Origin: Bryobacteraceae bacterium CoA2 C42
GTDB lineage: Bacteria > Acidobacteriota > Terriglobia > Bryobacterales > Bryobacteraceae
Assembly: GCA_019931245.1 (NCBI GenBank)
Contig: JAINDL010000122.1
Span: forward strand, 1-36,062
Reading direction: 5' to 3'
Length of the DNA: 36,062 nucleotides
The notes under the pieces are model-generated. The model was not told the DNA's origin, did not search any database, and worked only from the letters and a program-made list of their open reading frames with translations. Numbering within the stretch: the stretch's first letter is position 1; every line of letters begins with the position of its first letter. Shown piece by piece: positions 35,717 through 36,062 of the stretch. Both the position numbers and the translations under genes were made by a program.

Positions 35717-35760
35717 GGGACGGCACCCGGCCAGCGCCGCCCCTGTCGCGGTTCCTCAAC

Positions 35761-36062
35761 AGCGCACAGGCCGCGCAGGCCCGGCACCAACGGGCGAGGA
35801 ACTCGCCCCTCCTGCCGGGCCAAAAGCGAGTCCGTTGTGCGCGTTCCATAAAAGCGCACAGGCCGCGCAGGCCCGGCACTAACGGGCGAGGAACTCGCCC
35901 CGCCTGCCGGGCCAAAGCGAGTCCGTTGTGCGCGTTCCATAAAAGCGCACAGGCCGCGCAGGCCCGGCACCAACGGGCGAGGAACTCGCCCCTCTTGCCG
36001 GGCCAAAAGCGAGTCCGTTGTGCGCGTTCTTTAAAAGCGCACAGGCCGCGCAGGCCCGGCAC
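35761..36062. repeat. Tandem array of about 92-bp nested-palindrome units
   Basis: Units begin at 35761, 35853, 35944 and 36036 (periods 92, 91, 92); the fourth is cut by the window end. Each unit contains three nested inverted pairs. In unit 1 these are GCGCACA (35762-35768) with TGTGCGC (35836-35842), GGCCCGGCA (35778-35786) with TGCCGGGCC (35813-35821), and GGGCGAG (35792-35798) with CTCGCCC (35802-35808) around a GAA loop. All stems are identical in units 1-3. Differences fall in linkers (CCAAC/CTAAC; CTCC/CGCC/CTCT; AAAA/AAA) and in the spacer between units (CCAT/CTTT). No gene is present from 35717 on; the open frames through the array change frame with the 92/91-bp period. Confidence 0.92.

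What the first reader, a model, noticed from the sequence alone, without database searches (positions are those of the whole stretch)
35761..36062. Tandem array of three-tier nested hairpins with substitutions confined to unpaired positions
Each about 92-bp unit can fold as a 7-bp outer stem, a 9-bp middle stem and a 7-bp inner stem with a GAA loop. Across three complete units the 46 paired bases are invariant, while every substitution or indel I see is in a linker or between units. Few differences exist, so this is suggestive only, but it is the pattern expected if RNA or cruciform structure is under selection. The array starts 44 bp after a dead gene and runs past the window. Options include a structured RNA array, a REP/BIME-like intergenic element, or a DNA-structure binding platform. 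I cannot match it to a named element.
Basis: partly seen in the sequence, partly recalled or inferred. Interest (0 to 1): 0.7.

Follow-up and report, generated by a model that had tools for sequence, protein, structure and literature searches.

The report
Self-stacking mobile hairpins, IS110-linked
The 92-base repeats at the end of this contig are copies of a tiny gene-free jumping element that lands cleanly at one short target sequence and stacks into tandem arrays, probably moved by an RNA-guided IS110-type recombinase found beside copies of it in this genome and its relatives.

Summary
In detail: three complete units (92, 91, 92 bp) plus 27 bp, with the stated stems and all differences unpaired. 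The array stops because the window is a whole contig. It is not an isolated structure but a dispersed mobile element: 89 matches in this genome, present in 15 of 19 genomes of the genus and 15 of 150 sampled in the family. Empty sites in relatives show precise insertion after a target like TTCCTCAR-AA, with no target duplication beyond the shared AA. The element's right end (GTTCCTCAR-AA) resembles the target, so each insertion leaves a better target; this would explain head-to-tail arrays. 'Substitutions only in unpaired positions' fails across the family (divergence 0.095 paired, 0.097 unpaired), but outer and middle stems show compensatory changes. An IS110-family (RNA-guided) insertion sequence in G000, G010 and G011 shares the last 13 bases of one unit variety, the AA junction and a related left end, lies within the arrays, and has internally deleted copies. 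I read the units as its non-autonomous satellites. Against this, four largely complete genomes with units, one with near-identical tandem copies, have no detected IS110 gene, so the mobiliser is inferred, not shown. New variant of MITE/REP-like elements.

The parts
35752..35761 (+). Left junction: TTCCTCAA (target-like left half) and the core dinucleotide, here CA instead of the usual AA
   Evidence: Sequence; left-flank consensus TTCCTCARAA over 122 flanks
35761..35852 (+). Unit 1, 92 bp. Outer stem 35762-35768/35836-35842, middle 35778-35786/35813-35821, inner 35792-35798/35802-35808; right-end tail 35843-35852 (GTTCCATAAA, a decayed interior junction)
35853..35943 (+). Unit 2, 91 bp. Outer stem 35854-35860/35927-35933, middle 35870-35878/35905-35913, inner 35884-35890/35894-35900
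35944..36035 (+). Unit 3, 92 bp. Outer stem 35945-35951/36019-36025, middle 35961-35969/35996-36004, inner 35975-35981/35985-35991
36036..36062 (+). First 27 bp of a fourth unit, cut by the contig end

Best explanation
Each unit is a gene-free mobile element, [GCGCACA ... GTTCCTCAR]. It inserts precisely after a target resembling TTCCTCAR, with an AA dinucleotide shared by target and element and no longer duplication (shown by empty sites). Its right end resembles the target, so the junction left by one insertion is a better target for the next, which builds head-to-tail arrays (inferred from the geometry). The fold is kept by compensatory change (shown), so a hairpin in RNA or single-stranded DNA probably takes part in recognition (inferred). 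The mobilising enzyme is most likely an IS110-family RNA-guided recombinase acting in trans: the one in these genomes has the same ends and junction, lies in the arrays and has internally deleted derivatives (association shown, catalysis inferred). In this window the array is one such stack beside a decayed gene.
For: Spread: 89 matches in G000, 15 of 19 genus genomes, 15 of 150 family genomes. Empty sites without duplication at S45a, S55, S53, S46, S37a (lengths). Target: 116 distinct left flanks match TTCCTCAR at mean 4.39 of 8, background 2.18, same flanks shifted 2.16; >=5 of 8 in 53% against 3.7%. Unit number differs between genomes at shared sites S53, S46, S61. IS110-family gene: NF033542 222 bits, cut-off 140, PF01548 and PF02371. 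IS right end ends CGCGGTTCCTYAG-AA; left end aligns with the unit's (0, 3 and 3 of 500 shuffles reach the score for G000, G010, G011). G010 order unit-IS-unit-unit, joined by TTCCTCAGAA. Of 6 distinct IS left ends with a flank, 5 follow a unit directly; 2 internally deleted IS copies. IS110 homologues above 90% identity only in unit-bearing genomes. Published: a 22-bp donor works with bridge RNA supplied in trans (PMC11208160, passages).
Against: No IS110 gene detected in G131, G139, G104 and G058 (96-99% complete), though they hold units, in G131 nearly identical and tandem. In the genus, several unit-bearing genomes lack a close homologue, among them G008 with 81 unit matches, which has only an IS left end at a contig end. 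IS110 elements are known to target palindromic repeats, so adjacency could mean that the IS invades the arrays. Beyond the shared tail the right ends are only weakly alike (27, 31 and 13 of 500 shuffles reach the score). I found no convincing bridge-RNA guides; the IS non-coding region does not fold better than shuffles (z 0.09, 0.33, -1.20). No excision circle or transcript could be tested.
Confidence: 0.5

Rival explanations
1. The units are moved by another, unidentified recombinase of the host or of another element. The IS110 element uses unit junctions as its target, as IS110/IS1111 elements do with REP palindromes, and copies or mimics the tail.
For: Units without any detected IS110 gene in four genomes; a second hairpin family (type B) in G139 uses the same boundaries; IS1111 inserts into a REP within QMITE2 of Coxiella (PMC5896051, abstract and passages).
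Against: Left-end similarity and internally deleted IS copies; the insertion mode (no duplication, two-base core) is the one described for IS110 elements; no alternative enzyme found (Y1; Y2; neighbour ORFs inspected by eye only).
Confidence: 0.3
2. REP/BIME-type element moved by a RAYT or another Y1/Y2 HUH transposase (single-strand transposition, no duplication, guide-like pairing).
For: Palindromic, high copy, no duplication, insertion 3' of a short target; conserved apical GGAAC complements GTTCC of the tail.
Against: No PF01797 match in G008 (81 unit matches, 97% complete) nor in G018. Y1 genes in G000 belong, as far as I read their ends, to an IS200-like element with different hairpins. 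No PF04986 match in G000, G005, G006, G008, G010, G011.
Confidence: 0.06
3. Structured RNA or DNA-binding platform whose arrays are kept for a host function; mobility is incidental.
For: Compensatory changes in stems; wide presence in the family.
Against: Different sites in different genomes, absence from 4 of 19 genus genomes, genes interrupted with frameshift (S55, 92 nt), no Rfam match.
Confidence: 0.08
4. Ordinary tandem duplication by slippage at a hairpin, without mobility.
For: Units in one array are often most alike; the 33-nt core fits loss of the inner module between GGCCG repeats (my reading of the sequences).
Against: Dispersed copies with empty sites and a common target. Slippage may still change unit number within arrays.
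Confidence: 0.03

Closest known systems
IS110-family insertion sequences and their bridge RNA / seekRNA (PMC11208160, PMC11187229; passages)
   Same: TSD-poor insertion at a short core, specific target, an IS110-family gene with upstream non-coding region sharing ends with the units
   Different: Units carry no gene and, at 44-93 bp, no room for the published ~177-nt bridge RNA; guide pairing not shown; several unit-bearing genomes lack a detected IS110 gene
MITEs of DDE insertion sequences, e.g. Cardinium MITECca01 from IS982 (PMC9769881; passages)
   Same: Short, gene-free, many copies, parent IS and intermediate deletion forms in the same genome
   Different: No target duplication, self-targeting tandem arrays, much shorter
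REP/BIME elements with RAYT transposases (PMC2817692; search listing only, otherwise recalled)
   Same: Palindromic, high copy, tandem arrays
   Different: No RAYT/Y1 partner in G008, larger nested hairpin, other boundaries
Coxiella QMITE2 with its REP, target of IS1111 (PMC5896051; outline and passages)
   Same: Short palindromic MITE associated with an IS110/IS1111-type element
   Different: There the IS inserts into the MITE and the MITE has 7-11-nt direct repeats; here IS and units share boundaries and have no such repeats
Rickettsia palindromic elements (recalled)
   Same: Palindromic elements that can sit in frame inside genes
   Different: In frame only in some genic cases here (93 nt in two genes; 92, 97 and 229 nt elsewhere)

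Membership tests
Non-autonomous derivative of an IS110-family element | Insertion at a short core with no longer target duplication | tested here: met
   Empty-site alignments S45a, S55, S53, S46, S37a; S40, S54, S61 approximate; S52, S60, S45b uninformative
Non-autonomous derivative of an IS110-family element | Shares both ends with an autonomous copy | tested here: inconclusive
   Last 13 bases as in units of the GCGCGGTTCC variety; left end 0, 3, 3 of 500 shuffles; rest of the right end 27, 31, 13 of 500
Non-autonomous derivative of an IS110-family element | Autonomous copy present in the same genome | tested here: inconclusive
   Met in G000, G010, G011, left end only in G008; not met in G131, G139, G104, G058
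Non-autonomous derivative of an IS110-family element | Donor and target recognised by guides in a bridge RNA | tested here: inconclusive
   TCAGAA stretches in the IS non-coding region, no convincing two-loop model
Non-autonomous derivative of an IS110-family element | Excised circle with joined ends | not testable with these tools
   Needs DNA from cells or reads
REP/BIME with RAYT | RAYT (Y1) gene in the genome, flanked by the repeat | tested here: not met
   PF01797: 0 matches in G008 and G018; G000 copies have other ends and no unit beside them except one 4 kb away on C157
Classical MITE of a DDE insertion sequence | Target-site duplication | tested here: not met
   At most AA, about three bases with ambiguity
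Rickettsia-type in-frame palindromic element | Insertion in frame in coding genes as a rule | tested here: not met
   Of 7 insertion lengths 93, 93, 279 are divisible by 3 and 92, 97, 94, 229 are not; 279 is between genes
Rfam families | Covariance-model match at gathering score | tested here: not met
   Window: none; array at E<=1: three matches at 15.6-18.5 bits far below their gathering scores; IS stretch L320:1640-3700: none

The most novel reading that the evidence does not exclude
A class of RNA-guided satellite elements: gene-free hairpins that carry only the donor ends of an IS110-type recombination site, use its recombinase in trans, and build arrays because each insertion recreates a better target. 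Hairpins of unrelated sequence (types A and B) can use the same boundaries, so the site, not the hairpin sequence, defines the system. Intact junctions inside arrays are complete donor sites and may be lost by excision, leaving the decayed interior junctions that are seen.
Probability: 0.4. Interest if true: 0.75.

Novelty: new variant of a known kind. Interest (0 to 1): 0.6.

Why it matters
If right, IS110-type recombination naturally moves DNA as short as 44-93 bp from its ends alone, and a target-mimicking end is enough to turn an insertion site into a growing tandem array. That would be a natural test of bridge-type recombinases acting in trans, and a new origin for bacterial tandem palindromes; it would also explain why many contigs of this genome end inside such arrays. 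In six searches of one open-access library I saw no report of IS110-type satellites in tandem arrays; the listings were seen as titles and abstract starts, and eight papers in all as outline or passages.

Tried and rejected
RAYT/Y1 and IS91/Y2 partners: searched in the genus, not found in G008 (Y1) or in the copy-rich genomes (Y2).

In-frame insertion as a rule: my first codon-frame scan suggested it, also for S55; exact lengths showed S55 to be 92 nt, a frameshift. It is occasional.

A recurrent neighbour gene as mobiliser: clusters of ORFs near units showed nothing obvious by eye; only P0001 and four window ORFs were run against Pfam.

IS110 homologues at 44-49% identity in G016, G005, G015 and G018 show no GTTCCTYARAA end in the stretches held and are probably not partners.

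Bridge-RNA guides: TCAGAA stretches occur in the IS non-coding region, and GGAAC (complement of GTTCC) in the unit apex and IS left end, but no convincing model resulted.

Integron attC: considered from memory only. Viral contigs (exact 17-mer), phages and plasmids: no match.

Limits: loci found by the 17-mer scan (131 of the 243 distinct units) are conserved at the right end by construction, so end conservation is given for G000 only. Shuffle controls ignore relatedness of copies. Right-end consensus uses 113 of 127 tails that could be aligned at TTCC. In one search, 125 of 127 right ends, 121 of 122 left flanks and 97 or 98 of 98 interior junctions were used, the rest dropped for N or length. 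A pattern count failed and was redone. In one search one folded stretch (L361) was out of register and is not used.

Full report
WHAT IS THERE. The window ends in three complete units of 92, 91 and 92 bp and the first 27 bp of a fourth. The window is an entire contig, G000:C13, of a 6.07-Mb, 237-contig genome (97.7% complete), so the array is cut by the assembly.

A DISPERSED FAMILY. The unit has 89 matches (E<=1) in its genome, in about 40 clusters by my count of the list, many at contig ends, some perhaps two halves of one array (stretches). In the genus 15 of 19 genomes (G000 included) have it at E<=1e-3, with 0 to 81 matches; among 150 genomes drawn from the family, 15 genomes and 9 of 76 genera at E<=1e-6. 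By equal contig lengths G010, G011, G008, G139 and G058 appear to be the MAG series JAPKZB, JAPKZA, JADCJL, CAINNJ and CAIXXM (inference). Viral contigs, phages and plasmids: none.

FORMS. Of 243 distinct units found by anchors, 158 have an 82-nt core and 48 a 33-nt core that keeps only the outer hairpin. Of 153 arrays in the stretches held, 103 have one unit, 28 two, 12 three, 7 four, and one each five, six and nine; contig ends truncate some.

HOW IT INSERTS. Flanks of eleven G000 sites were searched in the genus, and stretches were fetched and aligned. Clean empty sites show native sequence continuing directly. At S45a (compared with related copies of a multi-copy gene) CTCGAAAAAGAGG corresponds to CTCGAAAAC-element-TTCCTTAG-AA-GAGG. 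At S55 CCATG-AA-GTACC corresponds to CCATG-AA-GCGCAC...GTTCCGAAA-AA-GTACC. Only AA, or about three bases given ambiguity, can be duplicated. S53, S46 and S37a agree; S40, S54 and S61 are approximate; S52, S60 and S45b were not informative. At S53, S46 and S61 the number of units differs between genomes.

TARGET AND SELF-TARGETING. The native left flank (n=122) has the consensus TTCCTCARAA; right terminal tails (113 alignable of 127) have TTCCTCARAAG. The 116 distinct left flanks match TTCCTCAR at 4.39 of 8 on average, background 2.18, the same flanks shifted 2.16. The right end thus resembles the target, and the right junction of an insertion is on average a better target than the original site; head-to-tail arrays follow. 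This step is inference.

INTERIOR JUNCTIONS. Junctions between units match TTCCTCAR (>=7 of 8, best frame) in 25 of 98 cases, right ends of arrays in 81 of 125 (Fisher 4.7e-9; distinct sequences only 15 of 61 and 78 of 120, 3e-7; G000 alone 5 of 38 and 23 of 34). Intact interior junctions may be unstable because they are complete donor sites; this is untested, and copies within arrays are not independent.

STRUCTURE. Paired and unpaired columns diverge equally overall (0.095 and 0.097; 140 distinct cores). The outer stem is nearly invariant (0.013). Standard pairs make 0.897 of cells (shuffles mean 0.850, maximum 0.857). Double-change cells number 82 (71 in the middle stem, 11 in the inner, by summing the table; shuffles mean 17.5, maximum 28); the number of pairs with any double change, 12, is reached by shuffles. 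Across genera, outer pair 6-75 is C-G in 206, A-T in 24, mismatched in 4 of 234; the A-T form occurs in G131, G069, G104 and G058, with C-G too in G104 and G058. Related copies inflate such counts, but several genera argue for structure. GGAAC at the apex is kept in most diverged units and complements GTTCC of the tail; whether it guides anything is unknown.

THE IS110 PARTNER. A search for IS110 transposases led to copies beside units in G000 and G010; the G011 copy starts at a contig end. The protein (P0001, 474 aa) passes NCBIfam NF033542 'IS110 family RNA-guided transposase' (222 bits, cut-off 140) and Pfam PF01548 and PF02371; no solved structure matches by sequence at E<=0.1. The element is 1718-1731 bp with 255-260 nt before the ATG. 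It begins AA-GC and ends CGCGGTTCCTYAG-AA, the last 13 bases being those of units of the GCGCGGTTCC variety (other units differ there by a base or two). Its left end aligns with the unit's beyond shuffles (0, 3 and 3 of 500 reach the score); the right-end comparison is weak (27, 31 and 13 of 500). In G010 the order is unit-IS-unit-unit. Of six distinct IS left ends with a flank, five follow a unit directly, and two copies are internally deleted to IS ends over a short remnant (G000 C90; G010), as expected on the way to a MITE.

WHAT SPEAKS AGAINST IT. Homologues above 90% identity occur only in G000, G010 and G011. G131, G139, G104 and G058 hold units, in G131 nearly identical and tandem, but no match to P0001 at E<=1e-15 nor to NF033542 at E<=1e-3. 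MAG assemblies can lose multi-copy elements, as G008's left-end-only copy suggests, but the G131 arrays seen here lie inside contigs. G139 also has a second hairpin family, type B, with other stems (GCTCGGG/CCCGAGC), the tail GGTTYCTCA-AA and arrays mixed with type A, again without a detected IS110 gene. So the site rule is firmer than the enzyme.

LITERATURE. IS110 elements recombine at a short core, and a 22-bp donor worked with bridge RNA in trans (PMC11208160, passages). IS1111 and IS110 elements need a non-coding RNA and form circles (PMC11187229, passages). Coxiella IS1111 targets a REP within QMITE2 (PMC5896051, outline and passages). MITE genesis from a resident IS is described in Cardinium (PMC9769881, passages). 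A MITE review does not mention IS110 in its main text (PMC10969869, term search). Passages of PMC3718332, PMC2680597 and PMC11578231 mention IS110 elements and MITEs separately; their MITEs are tied to other IS or to no family that I saw named as IS110, the family of ISMdi3 in PMC2680597 not being given in the passages. Listings of searches: 'IS110'+'MITE'+'insertion sequence' 17 papers, 'IS110 family'+'miniature inverted-repeat' 2, 'IS110'+'nonautonomous' 2, 'IS1111'+'MITE' 12, 'Acidobacteria'+'palindromic'+'intergenic repeat' 1, 'IS621'+'IS110'+'REP'+'tandem' 1.

VERDICT. Mobile, duplication-free, probably self-targeting hairpin element: well supported. Satellite of an IS110 recombinase: the best single mechanism, about even odds.

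Noticed in passing
window 35743-35760: The left flank of the window array, GTCGCGGTTCCTCAAC, itself looks like an element right end, so a decayed older element may precede the array.
   Followed up: no
L260:1736-2015, L351:1593-1690, L369:337-430, L386-L392 (G139): A second hairpin family (type B, stem GCTCGGG/CCCGAGC) with the tail GGTTYCTCA-AA, found alone and in arrays mixed with the window's type; 7 matches, 1 of 150 family genomes.
   Followed up: partly
L032:6121-6506 and L053:3068-3453 (G000): Single 93-nt units in frame inside two genes (an antitoxin-like and a cytochrome-like protein by recall), each adding 31 residues without a stop.
   Followed up: partly
L055 near 4002 (G000 C165): A 92-nt insertion shifts the frame of a gene that is open in G010.
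   Followed up: partly
L240:2592-2834 (G010 contig end): Six matches at 44-50-bp steps: an array of the short form only.
   Followed up: no
L224:4686-6022 (G010): Two two-unit arrays in the same orientation flank about 1 kb with a terminase-like reading frame (by recall); the left flank of L064 in G000 looks related.
   Followed up: no
L074-L079 (G000): Y1_Tnp genes (IS200-like by recall) sit at contig ends, so this multi-copy element also breaks the assembly.
   Followed up: partly
L064:261-310, L085, L089: Some units have the inner loop inverted (GAA to TTC) while the stem is kept.
   Followed up: no
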